Origin: Eggerthellaceae bacterium
GTDB taxonomy: Bacteria; Actinomycetota; Coriobacteriia; Coriobacteriales; Eggerthellaceae
Direction: 5' to 3'
DNA length: 11,074 nt
Assembly: GCA_900754955.1 (NCBI GenBank)
Contig: CAAEEV010000019.1
Coordinates: forward strand, 1 to 11,074
Shown here: piece after piece, positions 5,577-9,849 of the stretch
Layout of the letters: each line of letters starts with the position of its first letter
Numbering within the stretch: the stretch's first letter is position 1
The notes under the pieces: model-generated
What the model was told of the DNA's origin: nothing
Databases searched by the model: none
Seen by the model: the letters and a program-made list of their open reading frames with translations, nothing else
Translations under genes and position numbers: made by a program

Positions 5577-6218
5577 ATGAACGAGGAGAAATCCCGGAAA
5601 GCCAAGGCTCTTTCAAAAGCGGCGTTCGACGCCCAAGCGAAAACCTACGACAAGGGCATGGAGGGAGACCATGCGCGACAGCTCTACCGCATCGTGGCTG
5701 ACAAGGTGACGCAGGCATGCTCCAACATCCACATGCCGCACATCCTCGACCTCGGATGCGGAACGGGCGCGCTTGCAGAAATCATTCAGAGCGAAATCCC
5801 CGATTGCTCCATCGTAGGCATCGACTTGTCACCGCGCATGGTTGAACAAGCGCGCGCCCGTCTCGACGAGCGCGTCGAGATCACAACTGGCGACGCCGAG
5901 CATCTGCCCTTTCCTGATTCCTCGTTTGACGTCGTATATTGCAACGACTCGTTCCACCACTATCCAGACCCCGCTCTAGCCGCGTTTCAAGCATGGCGCG
6001 TGCTGCGCGCAGGCGGCACCTTCGTCATAGGCGACGTCTGGCAGCCGGCGCCAGCGCGAATGATCATGAACGCGTGGATGCCCCACTCGAAAGAAGGAGA
6101 CGTTCGCATCTACTCTGAAACCGAAATGGAGACGATCCTCGGGAGATGGTTCAACGACGTCTGCTGGCAACGAGTTAAATCAACCGCATGTGTTGTTACA
6201 GCCCAGAAAGGAAGATGA
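5577..6218 (+). CDS. class I SAM-dependent methyltransferase (Methyltransf_11/UbiE-like)
   Basis: The 213-residue protein shows the Rossmann-type SAM-binding core: motif I ILDLGCGTG (56-64), the acidic residue of motif II in GIDLS (Asp83, expected to hold the ribose), GDAEHLPF (105-112) near the adenine pocket, and FDVVYCNDSFHHYPDP (117-132) at the post-II/active-site region. The length is normal for a small-molecule methyltransferase of this group. AAAGGA six bases before the ATG supports the start. The acceptor is unknown. Its position directly after TetR and behind a matching operator suggests that it modifies a toxic or signalling compound handled by the same locus. A housekeeping quinone methyltransferase is less likely because no quinone genes are present. 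Confidence 0.9.
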   Translation: MNEEKSRKAKALSKAAFDAQAKTYDKGMEGDHARQLYRIVADKVTQACSNIHMPHILDLGCGTGALAEIIQSEIPDCSIVGIDLSPRMVEQARARLDERVEITTGDAEHLPFPDSSFDVVYCNDSFHHYPDPALAAFQAWRVLRAGGTFVIGDVWQPAPARMIMNAWMPHSKEGDVRIYSETEMETILGRWFNDVCWQRVKSTACVVTAQKGR

Positions 6219-6232
6219 AGCCATACAAGGAC

Positions 6233-6255
6233 GATAAATGGACAGGTCATTTGTC
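6233..6255 (+). repeat. hairpin element copy 1 (GACAGGT loop)
   Basis: GATAAATG, loop GACAGGT, CATTTGTC: an 8-bp stem with one T-G wobble on this strand. It sits between the convergent methyltransferase and DUF4179 genes and reaches to within two bases of the DUF4179 stop codon, so it could serve as a shared 3' end structure. It shares the loop and stem pattern with the elements at 7670, 8451 and 8967. Confidence 0.7.
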
Positions 6256-6256
6256 A

Positions 6257-7375
6257 TCATGCAGCACTCACGGGGATTTCCACGTCGCCCACCGCCACGC
6301 TCACGATATCGTCCACCGCAACGATGCGGTTGTAGGTCGCCGCCTTGGTGACGGCGCTCGTACCGTCGCCCTGTTTCACCGTTGAGCTGTTGGCACTCGT
6401 GGCGTCGAACGTCGTTCCGTCTGCGAAGGTCACGATGACGGGAAGGCTAATGACCGCCTCCTGCTCCGCAAGGGCCTCGCTGCTCACCTGGCCAGGAAGA
6501 GCGCAGTCATCGATCGGGCGATCGATCGTGTAGTCAACCGTGACGCCGAGGGAGGACACCGCCACAGCGTTGATCGTGACGCCTGTGCCCTGCCATGCCG
6601 TGCTCTGACCCGCTGGCAGATCGACGGTCGTGTCCTTGTAGTTCATCTCGAACTTGAAATTCCAGCTGCCCGAGGCCAAGGTCACGAACTCCCCCTCCGC
6701 AGTGCAGATCTCGAGCTTACTCATCGAGAAGCGCGCCGTGCGGCCCACGATGCTCGCATTGTCCCCTGTCTGCACCCCCATGACCTGTACGAGCTGCAGC
6801 GTGTTATCGCTGGGGTCGGCATCGTAGAGCTGGACCGACCCGCCATCAGCCGTCCAGCCGTCCACACGCAGGAACGCGTCGCCCACGTAGTTCAAGGTAC
6901 CGTCTTCGTTGGACTCGATTCCCTTGAGCGCGACGGGATCGTCGAACTTGATGGAATACGCGACGGCGTAGTTGGATCGATCGCCCACCACGGCCTCGGC
7001 TGTTACGGTGACGCCGTTTGAAGTCGCGCTTGCTCCGATGGGTCGGCCCACCTCGTTCAGGAGCTCGGTCTGTGCTGGGTCGCCGCCGAAAACATCAGAA
7101 AACACGTCGGCTGGATTGGGTAGCACCCCCGTCGCCACGGCAATCCCTCCGCCTCCGCCGATGACAAGCGCGGCGGCGAGACAGGCAGCGACCAGAGCGA
7201 GTCGGCGCTTGGGGCGTCGTCCGCCGGCATCCTCTGGAAACTCGACCATACGCATCGGCGCAACAGCACGAGCATCAACCGCCGCCTTCAAGTTGGAGGC
7301 CATACGAACCTTCGCTTTCTCGTCGAATGTGAGCTTGTCGAGGGATGTTTTGTAGGAATCAAGCGGAGAAGTCAT
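6257..7375 (-). CDS. DUF4179 family membrane protein, putative anti-sigma factor
   Basis: This 372-residue protein has a short cytoplasmic N-terminus (1-57, MTSPLDSYKTSLDKL), one membrane segment at about 58-84 (RLALVAACLAAALVIGGGGG), and a large extracytoplasmic part. Residues near 112-142 (ATSNGVTVTAEAVVGDRSNY, then AVAYSIKF) match the start of DUF4179 domains. In other bacteria such proteins are encoded right after ECF sigma genes and are thought to hold the sigma factor at the membrane. Here the start overlaps the end of a sigma region-4 gene by 17 bp, with AAGGAGG (7381-7387) five bases upstream, the classic coupled sigma/anti-sigma layout. The gene appears intact although its sigma partner lacks region 2. 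The extracellular domain is Ser/Thr/Val-rich and beta-like; no catalytic motif is seen. Anti-sigma activity is inferred. Confidence 0.85.
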   Translation of the reverse strand: MTSPLDSYKTSLDKLTFDEKAKVRMASNLKAAVDARAVAPMRMVEFPEDAGGRRPKRRLALVAACLAAALVIGGGGGIAVATGVLPNPADVFSDVFGGDPAQTELLNEVGRPIGASATSNGVTVTAEAVVGDRSNYAVAYSIKFDDPVALKGIESNEDGTLNYVGDAFLRVDGWTADGGSVQLYDADPSDNTLQLVQVMGVQTGDNASIVGRTARFSMSKLEICTAEGEFVTLASGSWNFKFEMNYKDTTVDLPAGQSTAWQGTGVTINAVAVSSLGVTVDYTIDRPIDDCALPGQVSSEALAEQEAVISLPVIVTFADGTTFDATSANSSTVKQGDGTSAVTKAATYNRIVAVDDIVSVAVGDVEIPVSAA

Positions 7376-7526
7376 CGAAGCCTCCTTTCAGAGTTTTCCT
7401 GAGACTGACCCTAGCTCGGCTCAAACGCTGGCGCACGGCGTCGTCGGTCGTCTCGAGGAGCGAGGCGATAGCGCGCGTTCCGAGCCCTTCGTAGTAATGG
7501 AGGTAAACCGCTTCACGCTGCGGCAT
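7359..7526 (-). pseudogene. RNA polymerase sigma factor reduced to region 4 (ECF-type remnant)
   Basis: The 55-residue frame starts MPQREAVYLHYYEGLGTRAI and contains a clear sigma-70 region 4: REAVYLHYYEGL followed by the helix-turn-helix TRAIASLLETTDDAVRQRLS and the basic tail RARVSLRKTLKGGFDDF. Normal ECF sigma factors are about 160-190 residues and need region 2 to bind the -10 element; no region 2 is found in any minus-strand frame up to the YjdF-like gene at 7808. The frame stays open upstream to 7766, but that part encodes nothing sigma-like and includes the hairpin element at 7670-7698. The fragment does have its own ATG with AAGGAGG seven bases before it (7534-7540), so it might still be made. 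I treat it as a decayed gene, with a short region-4-only regulator as the alternative. Confidence 0.72.
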
Positions 7527-7807
7527 TTTCTCGCCTCCTTCACGGGTCGTCGCGATTGCGCTGGAGGGTCTTTCAGAACCTTCCCCTCTCTTACTACACA
7601 CGCGGGAAGAGGAAATGTGACGGAGCATTTCCAGATTGGCGCTCGCGACGTCTGAGCGCAACAGGTGCCGGTGGCAAGCGGACAGGTCGTTTGCCACCAT
7701 CTGCTCCCCAGATGGCAGGCGGTGACGTTGACCATATGGGTCGCTTAGTTGTGGCAGCGATCCCATCGAACCATCTTGCAGAGGAGCTGGCCTCGCACGA
7801 ACACTCG
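7527..7807. other. non-coding stretch where the sigma N-terminus would be expected
   Basis: These 281 bases lie between the YjdF-like gene and the sigma fragment. No frame on either strand gives a recognisable protein. The one structured element is the hairpin repeat at 7670-7698. The position suggests that deletion or replacement of the 5' part of the sigma gene left this stretch. Confidence 0.55.
7670..7698 (+). repeat. hairpin element copy 2 (GACAGGT loop)
   Basis: GGTGGCAAGCG, loop GACAGGT, CGTTTGCCACC: an 11-bp stem with a single G-T wobble on this strand. Compared with copy 3 an A-T pair is replaced by G-C, a compensatory change. It lies in the non-coding stretch upstream of the sigma remnant, on the strand opposite to the neighbouring genes. 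Confidence 0.75.
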
Positions 7808-8224
7808 CTAGTGTCCGCGGTGCTTCTGCTTGCGTTTCTCCGTCTTTTTCGCGAACTTCTCACGGCGTTGCTCTTCACGCTGCGCGCTAGAGAGAGACTT
7901 GCTCGCCGCCTTCGCCGATTCGCGCTGCTCAGCGAGGACTTGCTGTGATCTCGTTCCTCGTCGGGCGTTTGATCGTATTTCCCGCTCGATCATTCGGCGA
8001 AGTCTTTTCGGGTTGATTCGCTTCGTCTGCTCAACTTTAATCTGGATGCTGTCCGTGAAACGGAATTCTCGCCACCTGTCGCACACGAAACGCAGAACCT
8101 CCGGGGTTGTGGGCTCTGCTCCAAAGACGTGACGGGCGACCTGGTAGCCCCTCTCGTCTTCGACCTCAACGATGCCGACCCAGAACGGATCCTCGAACCG
8201 AACCGTGAGTTTGCTCATGCCCAT
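7808..8224 (-). CDS. yjdF: YjdF-like protein (DUF2992)
   Basis: The 138-residue protein matches the YjdF/DUF2992 layout. An N-terminal beta-rich part (1-70) carries KLTVRFEDPFWVGIVEVED and ARHVFGAEPTTPEVLRFV, and a long, highly basic helical tail carries KRINPKRLRRMI and ends KRKQKHRGH. The biochemical role of the family is unknown. In Bacillus subtilis the gene is controlled by the yjdF riboswitch, which binds azaaromatic compounds, so a part in tolerance to such molecules is assumed. The ATG at 8224 is favoured over the in-frame ATG at 8218 because AAGGAG lies five bases upstream. That Shine-Dalgarno is inside an 11-bp stem, so translation is probably controlled by leader structure. It follows the guanidinium exporter gene on the same strand but has its own likely promoter. 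Confidence 0.88.
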   Translation of the reverse strand: MGMSKLTVRFEDPFWVGIVEVEDERGYQVARHVFGAEPTTPEVLRFVCDRWREFRFTDSIQIKVEQTKRINPKRLRRMIEREIRSNARRGTRSQQVLAEQRESAKAASKSLSSAQREEQRREKFAKKTEKRKQKHRGH

Positions 8225-8229
8225 ATACT

Positions 8230-8367
8230 CTCCTTCACGTTCTTGCGAGCATGCTCACGCACACGTGGCGATCACGCGTGCTTACGTGAAGGAGGGACAA
8301 CCTCAAAGGCAGGTTACTGACGAGCTCGCCGCAGCGCTTTGCCCGCATTCCGACTACCCAACGGAAT
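8230..8367 (-). promoter_or_regulatory. structured 5' leader sequestering the yjdF-like Shine-Dalgarno; candidate riboswitch
   Basis: In the minus-strand transcript CTCCTTCACGT (from 8294-8284) can pair perfectly over 11 bp with ACGTGAAGGAG (from 8240-8230), which contains the ribosome binding site. The 43 bases enclosed fold into two further stems: 9 bp at 8273-8281/8259-8267 with one G-U and a 5-nt loop, and 5 bp within 8245-8258. Together they form a three-way junction. Upstream are two small hairpins (AACCT/AGGTT at 8299-8315; ATTCCG/CGGAAT at 8347-8367). This architecture plus the YjdF gene suggests an azaaromatic (yjdF) type riboswitch. I cannot check the aptamer consensus by eye, so riboswitch identity is inference; the pairing itself is read directly. 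Confidence 0.6.
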
Positions 8368-8388
8368 CGTGTTTTTACCTTCGATGTA

Positions 8389-8397
8389 AGAATATCA
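8389..8397 (-). promoter_or_regulatory. candidate extended -10 promoter for the yjdF-like gene
   Basis: On the minus strand TGATATTCT reads as an extended -10 (TG, one base, TATTCT). No good -35 is seen at the right distance. A start near 8382 would give a leader of about 158 nt holding all hairpins described for this gene. Confidence 0.4.
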
Positions 8398-8450
8398 CGA
8401 GCCCGCAACGCGAACGCGCAGCAAGCACGATCATCGTTCCGTCGCAGTGT

Positions 8451-8479
8451 GGTGACAAGCGACCTGTCCGCTTGTCACC
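8451..8479 (-). repeat. hairpin element copy 3 (perfect 11-bp stem)
   Basis: Read on the plus strand it is GGTGACAAGCG, ACCTGTC, CGCTTGTCACC; on the minus strand the loop is GACAGGT. The 11-bp stem is perfect. It lies 36 bp beyond the stop of the guanidinium exporter gene, in the sense of that gene, and may act as its 3' hairpin. No T tract follows. Confidence 0.8.
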
Positions 8480-8499
8480 CGACCTATCCGCTTGCCGCC
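8460..8499. repeat. tandem 20-bp half-unit next to hairpin copy 3
   Basis: CGACCTGTCCGCTTGTCACC (8460-8479) is followed directly by CGACCTATCCGCTTGCCGCC (8480-8499), differing at three positions. The second unit is the loop plus one arm of the hairpin without its partner arm. It looks like a partial duplication that has since diverged. Confidence 0.65.
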
Positions 8500-8514
8500 T
8501 TCGCCCTCTGTTGC

Positions 8515-8838
8515 CTAGTGGGACTCCGACACCAGCTTGAGCCCGACGACGCAGCCGACGAGCACGGTGATCAGCACGATCTTCGCCACAGAAACAGGCT
8601 CGGCACCCGACACCATCGCGTAGATGACGGTGAGCGCCGCCCCTATGCCAACCCAAACCGCATAAGCGGTGCCGATCGGCAGTGTTTTCGTGGCCCATCC
8701 GAGCCCGATCATGCTCGCCGCGAGACCGATGAAGAATACGATGGTCGGAATTGGGTTAGTGAATCCGTCGGATTTGCCGAGCGCGGTGGCCCACACCGCC
8801 TCCATCATGCCGGAAAGAACAAGAACGACCCATGCCAT
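8515..8838 (-). CDS. gdx: guanidinium exporter of the small multidrug resistance family (Gdx/SugE)
   Basis: The 107-residue protein has four membrane helices (about 2-20, 29-49, 55-76, 83-103) and the normal SMR length. It carries the residues known for Gdx proteins at the family's own numbering: Glu13 (proton and substrate site), Trp16, Ser42, Tyr59 and Trp62, with the SugE-type segment TLPIGTAYAVWVGIGA. Gdx dimers sit in both orientations in the inner membrane and exchange guanidinium for protons. One gene is enough for a homodimer, and no second SMR gene is nearby. The start has AAGGGAG (8844-8850) five bases upstream, and a guanidine-III riboswitch precedes it, which independently supports guanidinium export over general drug efflux. 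Confidence 0.94.
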   Translation of the reverse strand: MAWVVLVLSGMMEAVWATALGKSDGFTNPIPTIVFFIGLAASMIGLGWATKTLPIGTAYAVWVGIGAALTVIYAMVSGAEPVSVAKIVLITVLVGCVVGLKLVSESH

Positions 8839-8840
8839 AA

Positions 8841-8903
8841 GAGCTCCCTTCTGTCACGCGCCGTCTTTGCGATCCTGGTACGGCTGCCCTCGTCAGGGAG
8901 CTC
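8841..8903 (-). promoter_or_regulatory. guanidine-III (ykkC-III) riboswitch with anti-Shine-Dalgarno arm
   Basis: The minus strand reads CCUGACGAGGGCAGCCGU, then ACCAGGAUCGCAAAGACGGC from 8897 to 8860. It follows the guanidine-III consensus: helix P1 CCUG/CAGG (8897-8894/8877-8874), the conserved ACGAGG after P1, and a pseudoknot GCCGU/ACGGC (8884-8880/8864-8860) preceded by AAAG. GAGCUCCCU (8903-8895), overlapping the 5' strand of P1, is the exact complement of AGGGAGCUC (8849-8841), which contains the ribosome binding site. This gives a simple switch: without guanidine the site is paired; with guanidine P1 and the pseudoknot form and free it. The aptamer match is from memory of the family; the pairings are read from the sequence. 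Confidence 0.87.
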
Positions 8904-8928
8904 AGGGGGTATCCGAAAGCTCAGCCGC

Positions 8929-8937
8929 ATTGTAGCA
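8929..8937 (-). promoter_or_regulatory. extended -10 promoter of the gdx gene
   Basis: TGCTACAAT on the minus strand is an extended -10 (TG, one base, TACAAT with 5 of 6 consensus bases). No clear -35 is present at the expected distance. Transcription would start near 8922, about 20 bases before the riboswitch. Confidence 0.55.
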
Positions 8938-8966
8938 CGACAACTGCTGGGCATTCGGCGTTTTGA

Positions 8967-8991
8967 TGACAAACGACCTGTTCACTTGTCA
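8967..8991 (-). repeat. hairpin element copy 4 (AACAGGT loop)
   Basis: On the minus strand TGACAAGTG, loop AACAGGT, CGTTTGTCA: nine pairs of which two are G-T wobbles; on the plus strand those two would be A-C mismatches. Outside it TTTGATG (8963-8969) and CATCAAA (8994-9000) can form an alternative outer stem. It lies between the divergent gdx and metallo-hydrolase genes, upstream of both. Confidence 0.68.
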
Positions 8992-9058
8992 CGCATCAAA
9001 GAAGCTGGCTCCGCGAGGTTTACGTCGTTCCGCTTCTTCAAGTACCCTTCCCTCAATG

Positions 9059-9067
9059 TGATACGAT
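9059..9067 (+). promoter_or_regulatory. weak candidate promoter for the metallo-hydrolase gene
   Basis: TGATACGAT fits an extended -10 (TG, one base, TACGAT, 4 of 6 consensus bases). The best -35 (TTCAAG, 9037-9042) is poor and 19 bases away. A start near 9074 would leave a leader of about 75 nt. Confidence 0.3.
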
Positions 9068-9123
9068 GGCGAAAGGGAAATTCGCCCAGCGGCGCAACTC
9101 CCATCCACCGCGGGCGATGGAGC

Positions 9124-9135
9124 AGGACGCGTCCT
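9124..9135. promoter_or_regulatory. 12-bp perfect palindrome abutting the ribosome binding site
   Basis: AGGACGCGTCCT is a perfect palindrome that ends exactly where AAGGAGG (9136-9142) begins. It could be an operator or a small RNA stem limiting access to the ribosome binding site. No protein can be assigned to it. Confidence 0.4.
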
Positions 9136-9147
9136 AAGGAGGATACG

Positions 9148-9849
9148 ATGGGCGTCAAGAAGCTGACCTTCTTCTTCGTGAATTCCTACGTCATCGAAGC
9201 CGGCGACAAAACGGTGCTGTTCGACTGCGGCGCCATTCTGGAGCCCGAGAAACTTCCCGCATTCCTCGAGGAGCAGGGCGTCAACCCCGCGGAGATCGAC
9301 CTCATCATCGTGAGCCACGACCACTTCGACCACATGCAGCTCCTCGGCGCATGGAAAGAGCTCACTGGCGCACCCGTGCTCTGCCACAAGAACGCCGTCG
9401 AATTCCTCGAGACCGGCAAGAAGGAGAACCTGTACGCATTCGGCGAGCGCGCCCAGCAATACCAGCCCTTCATGGACTTCATGGACGAGAGCTTCAAGCT
9501 GCCCGTGCCGCAGGTCAAGCCCGACATTGTCGTAGGCGACGACGATTACGACCTGCACGACTGGGGCTTCCCTGGCAAGATCATCTACACGCCTGGCCAT
9601 ACCGACTCGCACATCTCGCTCGTCATGGACGACCGTACCGCCTTCTCAGGCGACACCTTCCTCGACTGGCACACCGTGCAGCCGCTCGAAGAGATGTACC
9701 CCGATCGCACCGTCGGCTTCAACTGGGTTATGAACGATCTCGAAAAGGCGAAGGCGTCTGTGCGCCGGCTGCTCGAAGAGGCTGACACCTTCTACGGCGG
9801 CCACGGCGAGACCTACACCCGCGAAGAAGTGGAAAGCCTGCTGGATTAG
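9148..9849 (+). CDS. metallo-beta-lactamase fold hydrolase
   Basis: The 233-residue protein has the MBL-fold metal site: HDHFDH (57-62, the HxHxDH motif), His151 in TPGHT, Asp169 in FSGDT, and a C-terminal His219 in GGHGE. The spacing suits a two-metal (usually zinc) hydrolase of the general glyoxalase-II-like superfamily. The sequence starts with a typical beta-strand pair, FFFVNSYVIEAGDKTVLFDCG (7-27). It has no signal peptide, so it should be cytoplasmic. The start at 9148 was chosen for AAGGAGG five bases upstream; the same frame runs upstream to 8449, but that stretch would cross the riboswitch and gdx gene on the opposite strand. The oxidoreductase gene begins about 38 bp later, so the two may be co-transcribed. 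The substrate is unknown; a thioester or redox-related role is only a guess. Confidence 0.92.
   Translation: MGVKKLTFFFVNSYVIEAGDKTVLFDCGAILEPEKLPAFLEEQGVNPAEIDLIIVSHDHFDHMQLLGAWKELTGAPVLCHKNAVEFLETGKKENLYAFGERAQQYQPFMDFMDESFKLPVPQVKPDIVVGDDDYDLHDWGFPGKIIYTPGHTDSHISLVMDDRTAFSGDTFLDWHTVQPLEEMYPDRTVGFNWVMNDLEKAKASVRRLLEEADTFYGGHGETYTREEVESLLD

What the first reader, a model, noticed from the sequence alone, without database searches (positions are those of the whole stretch)
6233..8991. Family of four strand-polarised hairpins with a conserved GACAGGT loop and covarying stems
Seen directly: four elements (6233-6255 and 7670-7698 on the plus strand; 8451-8479 and 8967-8991 on the minus strand) share a 7-nt loop GACAGGT (AACAGGT in copy 4) inside 8-11 bp stems. 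The stems differ by paired changes: A-T to G-C between copies 3 and 2, and G-C to A-T plus C-G to T-A next to the loop in copy 1. All four non-Watson-Crick pairs (one in copy 1, one in copy 2, two in copy 4) are G-U on the GACAGGT strand and would be A-C mismatches on the other strand. That asymmetry suggests selection on RNA of one sense. Three copies lie at or near gene 3' ends or in decayed sequence, and one lies between divergent genes. They may be REP-like mobile hairpins, 3' end stabilisers or protein-binding RNA sites with the loop as recognition element.
Basis: seen in the sequence. Interest (0 to 1): 0.78.

Follow-up and report, generated by a model that had tools for sequence, protein, structure and literature searches.

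The report
REP-like hairpin repeats of coriobacterial transposases
The four hairpins are copies of a dispersed DNA repeat that, in related bacteria, flanks a single-strand DNA transposase gene and can exceed a hundred copies per genome; they are probably not a new RNA device, but they bear on whether one class of transposases has such hairpins.

Summary
Four hairpins with a [GA]ACAGGT loop and covarying stems lie where stated, far beyond chance; a fifth, half unit (8480-8499, -) abuts copy 3. The family, GACAAG-N-GGACAGGT-NNNTTGTC, is a high-copy dispersed repeat in some Eggerthellaceae and other Coriobacteriia: 129 copies in G030, 123 in G299, 94 in G405, 91 in G290, often in inverted pairs. 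It flanks, inverted, a ~255-aa HUH/Y1 transposase of the TIRYT kind. Seven of eight genes with GACAGGT repeats fall in one supported clade of nine. More widely, 59 of 74 such genes carry private inverted repeats, against 2 of 216 swapped-flank controls. Best reading: REP/TIR repeats recognised as folded single-stranded DNA on the GACAGGT strand. The G-U excess is consistent in direction but weak; A-C pairs occur too, and it cannot separate RNA from ssDNA. Every window copy has a pyrimidine where relatives have the second G of GGGG, a variant almost unseen elsewhere. Against simple mobility: three repeat-bearing genomes lack the enzyme and no empty site was found. The window's own genome is not held, so its enzyme and copy number are untested.

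The parts
6230..6258 (+). Hairpin copy 1 (8-bp stem 6233-6240/6248-6255, loop GACAGGT 6241-6247; 11-bp stem if the C.A mismatch 6232/6256 is bridged). Fills the gap between convergent stop codons at 6218 (+) and 6257 (-)
7670..7698 (+). Hairpin copy 2 (11-bp stem with one G.T; loop GACAGGT 7681-7687), inside the non-sigma N-terminal part of a truncated sigma-70 region 4 ORF (7359-7766, -)
8451..8479 (-). Hairpin copy 3 (perfect 11-bp stem; loop GACAGGT 8462-8468), downstream of the SMR transporter gene
8480..8499 (-). Half unit GGCGGCAAGCGGATAGGTCG: 5' arm and loop without a 3' arm, directly 5' of copy 3
   Evidence: sequence
8966..8992 (-). Hairpin copy 4 (10-bp stem with three G.T-type pairs; loop AACAGGT 8976-8982), between divergent SMR and MBL-fold genes

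Best explanation
The hairpins are dispersed REP-type repeats (terminal hairpins) of a TIRYT-like family of HUH/Y1 transposases. SHOWN in relatives: the same hairpin is multicopy, occurs in inverted pairs, and bounds a Y1 transposase gene in the order hairpin(+), gene, hairpin(-); the hairpin type follows one transposase clade; stems covary. INFERRED: the transposase recognises the folded GACAGGT strand of single-stranded DNA, cleaves and rejoins near the foot of the hairpin, and so moves or copies either the gene-bearing element or gene-less hairpin pairs. Single hairpins and half units, as in the window, would be remnants or partial products. Strand polarity and the G.T excess then follow from recognition of one DNA strand. 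INFERRED for the window: a lineage outside the genomes held, whose source copy had a pyrimidine at the second G of GGGGACAG, closing an otherwise mismatched pair. At gene ends such hairpins may also act on mRNA 3' ends; that is secondary and untested.
For: The perfect window copy differs from a common repeat of G030, G299, G405, G290 and G420 at 1 of 23 bases. Copy numbers 129, 123, 94 and 91; in G290 29 head-to-head neighbours, 27 of them identical to each other; in G030 pairs about 65 bases apart with conserved inner ends. Hairpins of this type bound Y1 genes, inverted, in L056, L057, L086, L087, L090, L091 and L175. 59 of 74 TIRYT-like genes have inverted repeats between their own flanks, against 2 of 216 swapped pairs. 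7 of 8 genes with GACAGGT repeats lie in one clade of 9 (98/95); 4 label changes against a shuffled mean of 7.7, 0 of 500 as low. Covariation.
Against: The window's genome is not held and no transposase lies in the 11 kb. No window copy has the full GGGG of the GGGGWSAS motif reported for TIRYT repeats. G030, G097 and G084 bear repeats but give no match to a TIRYT of the clade; G030 and G097 have no Y1_Tnp match even at E 1. Between G299 and G405, 7 of 7 testable sites are occupied in both; no empty site was seen. 15 of 74 TIRYT-like genes have no such inverted repeat, and only 27 of 59 repeats pass the simple hairpin test with symmetric scoring.
Confidence: 0.8

Rival explanations
1. Host RNA elements: the hairpins are kept by selection as mRNA 3' stabilisers, terminators or protein-binding RNA sites read in the GACAGGT sense; the link to transposases is only their origin.
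For: G.T exceeds A.C on the loop strand in each set. Three repeat-bearing genomes lack the enzyme. Hairpins are shared at 7 of 7 testable sites between G299 and G405. In G299 and G405 the hairpin is followed by AGCTTTT and, in rough ORF calls, 17 of 25 G299 sites are between convergent or tandem genes.
Against: The excess is weak and equally expected for ssDNA. Window copies have no T-run and are not among the 3 terminator-like hits. One window copy lies between divergent genes; orientation to genes is mixed. Inverted pairs and transposase-bounding positions are not explained.
Confidence: 0.12
2. Orphan repeats: true TIRYT repeats, but the window's lineage has lost the enzyme and the copies are decaying relics.
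For: Copies 1 and 4 and the half unit are diverged; copy 2 sits in a truncated gene; enzyme-free genomes with up to 129 copies exist.
Against: Copies 2 and 3 keep 11-bp stems, and all copies share a pyrimidine at base 7, which suggests amplification from a lineage-specific source rather than random decay.
Confidence: 0.3
3. Chance palindromes or an assembly artefact.
For: Copy 4 folds only modestly better than shuffles (RNA z -1.65).
Against: 0.00 expected matches in shuffles; covariation beyond 500 of 500 shuffles; hundreds of related copies in other genomes.
Confidence: 0.01

Closest known systems
TIRYT / TIRtron terminal repeats (Di Nocera et al. 2013, PMC3733652); TnpAY1 subclass 2.1 (Quentin et al. 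2018, PMC6006769)
   Same: Y1/HUH transposase of about 250 aa with NHxH and Y-I-H-x-NP motifs, bounded by inverted repeats with a GGGGACAG core in relatives; repeats also dispersed, in dimers and clusters.
   Different: Here the repeats are hairpins in many cases, whereas Quentin et al. report no REP-like sequences beside subclass 2.1 genes; copy numbers reach 129; the host group is Coriobacteriia; window copies have GCGG, ATGG or GTGA instead of GGGG.
REP/REPIN repeats with RAYT (TnpA_REP)
   Same: Short dispersed hairpins, often in inverted pairs, bounding a Y1 transposase gene.
   Different: No GTAG/GTGG tag at the foot is seen; the transposases score under the cut-off of NCBIfam's REP_Tyr_transpos; the conserved bases are in the upper stem and loop.
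IS200/IS605 family ends
   Same: Y1_Tnp domain over the Pfam cut-off in 7 of 7 sample proteins; folding of one DNA strand is the presumed substrate (literature, not shown here).
   Different: Ends are inverted copies of one hairpin; the protein has a C-terminal extension; gene-less copies abound.

Membership tests
TIRYT/TIRtron repeats | Inverted repeats bounding a TIRYT gene | tested here: met
   In relatives, for this hairpin type: L056, L057, L086, L087, L090, L091, L175. In the window's own genome not testable.
TIRYT/TIRtron repeats | GGGGWSAS motif | tested here: not met
   Met in relatives. In the window: GCGGACAG (copies 2, 3), ATGGACAG (copy 1), GTGAACAG (copy 4), GCGGATAG (half unit); none has GGGG. 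Filed as a derived relative, not a strict member.
TIRYT/TIRtron repeats | Enzyme of subclass 2.1 type (NHVH/NH[YF]H, FQ or W[EQ], Y[IV]HLNP-like, C-terminal helix-turn-helix) | tested here: inconclusive
   Motifs NHVH, NHFH, FQ and YIHxNP read in the proteins; helix-turn-helix matches only below cut-off, in 3 of 7. The published subclass profiles were not run.
REP/REPIN of RAYT | Short palindromic repeat, dispersed in many copies | tested here: met
   In relatives. Four and a half copies in the window.
REP/REPIN of RAYT | Inverted doublets | tested here: met
   In relatives: 29 head-to-head neighbours in G290, pairs in G030. Not seen in the window.
REP/REPIN of RAYT | 5' GTAG/GTGG tag at the foot | tested here: not met
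   Only 1-4 bases 5' of the 23-mer are conserved within a genome, with no GT[AG]G.
REP/REPIN of RAYT | Cognate RAYT by NCBIfam NF047646 cut-off | tested here: not met
   Best model, but 54 to 71 bits against a cut-off of 80 in 7 of 7.
Intrinsic terminator | G+C-rich hairpin followed by a T-run | tested here: not met
   None of the window hairpins forms the stem of any of the 3 terminator-like hits in 6100-9150 (2.3 expected).

The most novel reading that the evidence does not exclude
Coriobacteriia hold a large radiation of TIRYT-like enzymes, most of them paired with a private hairpin: a natural set of protein-hairpin specificity pairs. In several lineages the hairpins have outlived the enzyme at high copy and fixed positions because the host now uses them, and the window records a lineage in which the hairpin changed its conserved G-rich core into a fully paired stem.
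Probability: 0.3. Interest if true: 0.66.

Novelty: new variant of a known kind. Interest (0 to 1): 0.42.

Why it matters
It turns an unexplained local hairpin set into a testable repeat-transposase system in Coriobacteriia. It gives data on a point left open in print: whether subclass 2.1 / TIRYT enzymes have REP-like hairpins (Quentin et al. 2018 found none and called for further analysis). The many different enzyme-hairpin pairs would allow the recognition rules of these Y1 enzymes to be worked out by comparison.

Tried and rejected
Rfam scan: one match, an azaaromatic (yjdF) riboswitch, none to the hairpins at gathering scores. Viral contigs: no exact match to either of two patterns. Literature searches, all of PubMed Central open papers only: Eggerthella lenta with 'repetitive extragenic palindromic', 0 papers; 'REP-associated tyrosine transposase' with Actinobacteria, 0; 'ggggacagg' anywhere, 286 papers, the 30 listed unrelated by title; RAYT/REPIN terms, 15 papers listed and 4; TIRYT, 2 papers; Coriobacteriia with 'palindromic repeat', 1 paper, unrelated by its title and abstract start; RAYT/REPIN/'group 1'/hairpin, 1,699 papers with two terms, 20 listed. 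PADLOC: no family for one TIRYT-like protein.

Search for an empty site between G299 and G405: none found. One search printed no gaps; one search stopped on a script error after two alignments (its hairpin pattern was also mistyped, so its count of 0 means nothing). Of 21 G299 clusters with 300-bp flanks, 7 had both flanks in the 1.58 Mb of G405 read, 10 had one or discordant flanks, 4 none. Two of the 7 are the transposase's own ends. The row L121 was scored 'False' by the script because the flank alignment ran through the hairpin; the alignment shows a hairpin there. Part of the G405 sample was chosen because it held hairpins (some regions), so 7 of 7 is biased upward.

The wobble test was first scored in a way that favours G.T (65 vs 17); I replaced it by symmetric scoring (9 vs 3). 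The first G030 table had one row too many (101) and was redone. The hand count of G290 loci (58 loci, 24 vs 7) was wrong and is replaced (54 loci, 20 vs 7). For G405, 5 of 10 deviating rows were entered; the other 5, read by eye, hold no G.T or A.C in the counted pairs. For the tree, 3 of 78 genes (L094, L165, L178) were left out; its bootstrap had not settled. The ORF contexts are rough: 25 G299 and 21 G030 loci, 10 of the latter falling inside an ORF.
Full report
What was checked. The window is 11,074 bases; no whole genome is held for it. Its genes include two ABC transporter subunits, a TetR regulator, a methyltransferase (5577-6218, +), a DUF4179 protein (6257-7375, -), a truncated sigma-70 region 4 ORF (7359-7766, -), a DUF2992/YjdF protein (7808-8224, -) behind an azaaromatic riboswitch (8277-8388, -), an SMR-family transporter (8515-8838, -) and an MBL-fold protein (9148-9849, +). 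The one contig that the MBL protein found among named genomes is an uncultured Eggerthellaceae MAG, 86% identical. That genome (G001) has no hairpin at up to 3 mismatches.

The hairpins. Copy 1 fills the 38 bases between two convergent stop codons (6218 and 6257). Copy 2 lies in the non-sigma N-terminal part of the truncated sigma ORF. Copy 3 is downstream of the SMR gene. Copy 4 is between divergent genes. The pattern search gives 3 matches (copies 2, 3, 4) at up to 3 mismatches, against 0.00 expected; copy 1 is more diverged. Directly 5' of copy 3 on its strand lies a half unit, GGCGGCAAGCGGATAGGTCG (8480-8499), with no 3' arm. By eye, similar half-plus-full units stand at the transposase-bounding repeats of L056, L086, L087 and L090, but a scan found only 2 half units among 172 units in seven genomes' loci, so they are uncommon. 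On 20 distinct hairpins, 4 from the window and 16 chosen from relatives, pairing, cells with changes on both sides and the covariation score exceed all 500 shuffles and all slid registers.

A dispersed family. In 138 Eggerthellaceae genomes 9 have matches; in a class-wide draw of 396, 13 do, several of them single three-mismatch hits that may be chance. Copy numbers with relatives' consensus patterns: G030 129, 100 listed; G299 123, the 100 listed all identical; G405 94; G290 91. Reversed-pattern controls were 0 in every listed genome except G030 (1 and 1). In G290, 91 copies form 54 loci with 29 head-to-head neighbours, 27 of them identical. In G030 many copies form head-to-head pairs about 65 bases apart with conserved inner ends. 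The flank 3' of the hairpin is conserved within a genome (AGCTTTT in G299 and G405, ACATTG in G030, ACGC in G290), the 5' flank for only 1-4 bases; no GTAG-like tag is seen.

The transposase. PF01797 (Y1_Tnp) matches 71 of 138 Eggerthellaceae genomes. I read 101 Y1 loci: 30, 11, and 60 fetched from the lower-scoring hits, not all of them. Of these, 78 encode the roughly 250-aa NHxH...YxxNP type and 23 do not. Hairpins of the window's type bound such genes in the order hairpin(+), gene, hairpin(-) in L056, L057, L086, L087, L090, L091 and L175. Of 74 genes with both flanks, 59 have an inverted repeat scoring 36 or more between their own flanks, against 2 of 216 pairs of flanks swapped between loci; 15 have none. 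With symmetric scoring 27 of those 59 repeats are hairpins better than all of 40 shuffles; the rest are imperfect or asymmetric under this gap-free test. Hairpin sequences differ greatly between genes. In the tree of 75 genes, 7 of the 8 with GACAGGT repeats sit in one clade of 9 (98/95); the label needs 4 changes against a shuffled mean of 7.7, 0 of 500 as low; the bootstrap had not settled. Seven of 7 sample proteins pass Pfam's Y1_Tnp cut-off; the best NCBIfam model is REP_Tyr_transpos, below its cut-off in all 7.

Results against a simple mobile-element story. G030 (129 copies), G097 (15 copies, all on one 2.7-Mb contig) and G084 (18 copies) have no match to a TIRYT of the clade at E 0.1. 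G030 and G097 have no Y1_Tnp match even at E 1; G084 has one Y1 gene, not of this type. Between the related G299 and G405, 7 of 7 hairpin sites with both flanks matched carry hairpins in both, with copy number differing at 6 of the 7 as I read them (sampling bias and the L121 row are told under Tried and rejected). At the five sites outside the transposase the flanks are 84-100% identical and the hairpins nearly unchanged. That fits maintenance, sequence exchange or both. No empty site was seen, so movement is inferred from distribution and anatomy.

The G-U argument. Over 11-bp stems the window has 5 G.T-type and 1 A.C-type pairs. In G030, leaving out the pair that is G.T in the consensus, G.T to A.C is 11 to 5 cells (8 to 5 over distinct sequences; p 0.21) in the 100 listed copies. 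In 27 flanking hairpins it is 9 to 3 (p 0.15; slid control 282 to 258). In G290 it is 44 to 9 cells, and 20 loci with any G.T against 7 with any A.C. In G405 it is 5 to 4. The direction agrees in every set, but copies are related by descent, and A.C variants such as TTCGTC recur in G290. The conserved G run on the 5' arm by itself makes G.T likelier than A.C (inference). RNA and DNA both fold better on the GACAGGT strand in all four window copies. The bias fits recognition of one DNA strand at least as well as RNA selection.

What is peculiar to the window. Relatives have G at the seventh base of GACAAGGGGACAGGT, mostly opposite G or A, so that pair is open. The window has C (copies 2, 3, half unit) or T (copies 1, 4), so it is closed or wobbles. 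In 395 genomes of the order, CAAGYGGACAGGTCRYTTG occurs 3 times in 2 genomes, each time with T. Two three-mismatch matches with C (L072, L073) are single and may be chance. Strictly, then, the window copies fail the GGGGWSAS motif and are filed as a derived relative of the TIRYT repeats.

What is known. Di Nocera et al. 2013 (PMC3733652; I saw the abstract, section 16 and term passages) named TIRYTs and TIRtrons, with the GGGGWSAS motif, dimers and clusters, and one self-complementary family in S. maltophilia. Quentin et al. 2018 (PMC6006769; [quoted passage not shown] That IS200/IS605 Y1 enzymes act on ssDNA hairpins rests on that abstract and on general knowledge. The kind is known. New within the searches made are the coriobacterial radiation, its hairpins, their high copy number and the window's variant; papers outside the open library, and supplements, were not searched.

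Verdict. Observation confirmed with two corrections; interpretation partly supported; a new variant of a known kind.

Noticed in passing
window 8277-8388 (-): Azaaromatic (yjdF) riboswitch, 62.7 bits, upstream of a DUF2992/YjdF gene (7808-8224, -); a textbook arrangement.
   Followed up: no
window 7359-7766 (-): Sigma-70 region 4 ORF with no detectable region 2; hairpin copy 2 lies in its unrelated N-terminal stretch, which suggests a truncated sigma gene beside its DUF4179 partner.
   Followed up: no
window 9148-9849 (+): The MBL-fold protein matches only 2 of 138 Eggerthellaceae genomes at E 1e-40: 86% identity in G001, 52% or less in G118.
   Followed up: partly
L098-L127 (G299), L245-L273 (G405): In these genomes the hairpin is followed by AGCTTTT and often preceded by AAAAGCT, which makes it look like a two-way terminator; the window copies lack this.
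   Followed up: partly
L308 (G405:C71) versus L117 (G299:C23): Where G299 has three hairpins, G405 has one hairpin and a run of AAAGCTGACAA fragments, as if units had been gained or lost in pieces.
   Followed up: no
L095 (G299), L167, L181, L169: Other TIRYT-like genes have different private hairpins around the same GGGGACAG, such as AAAAGGGGACAGTCCCCTTTT.
   Followed up: partly
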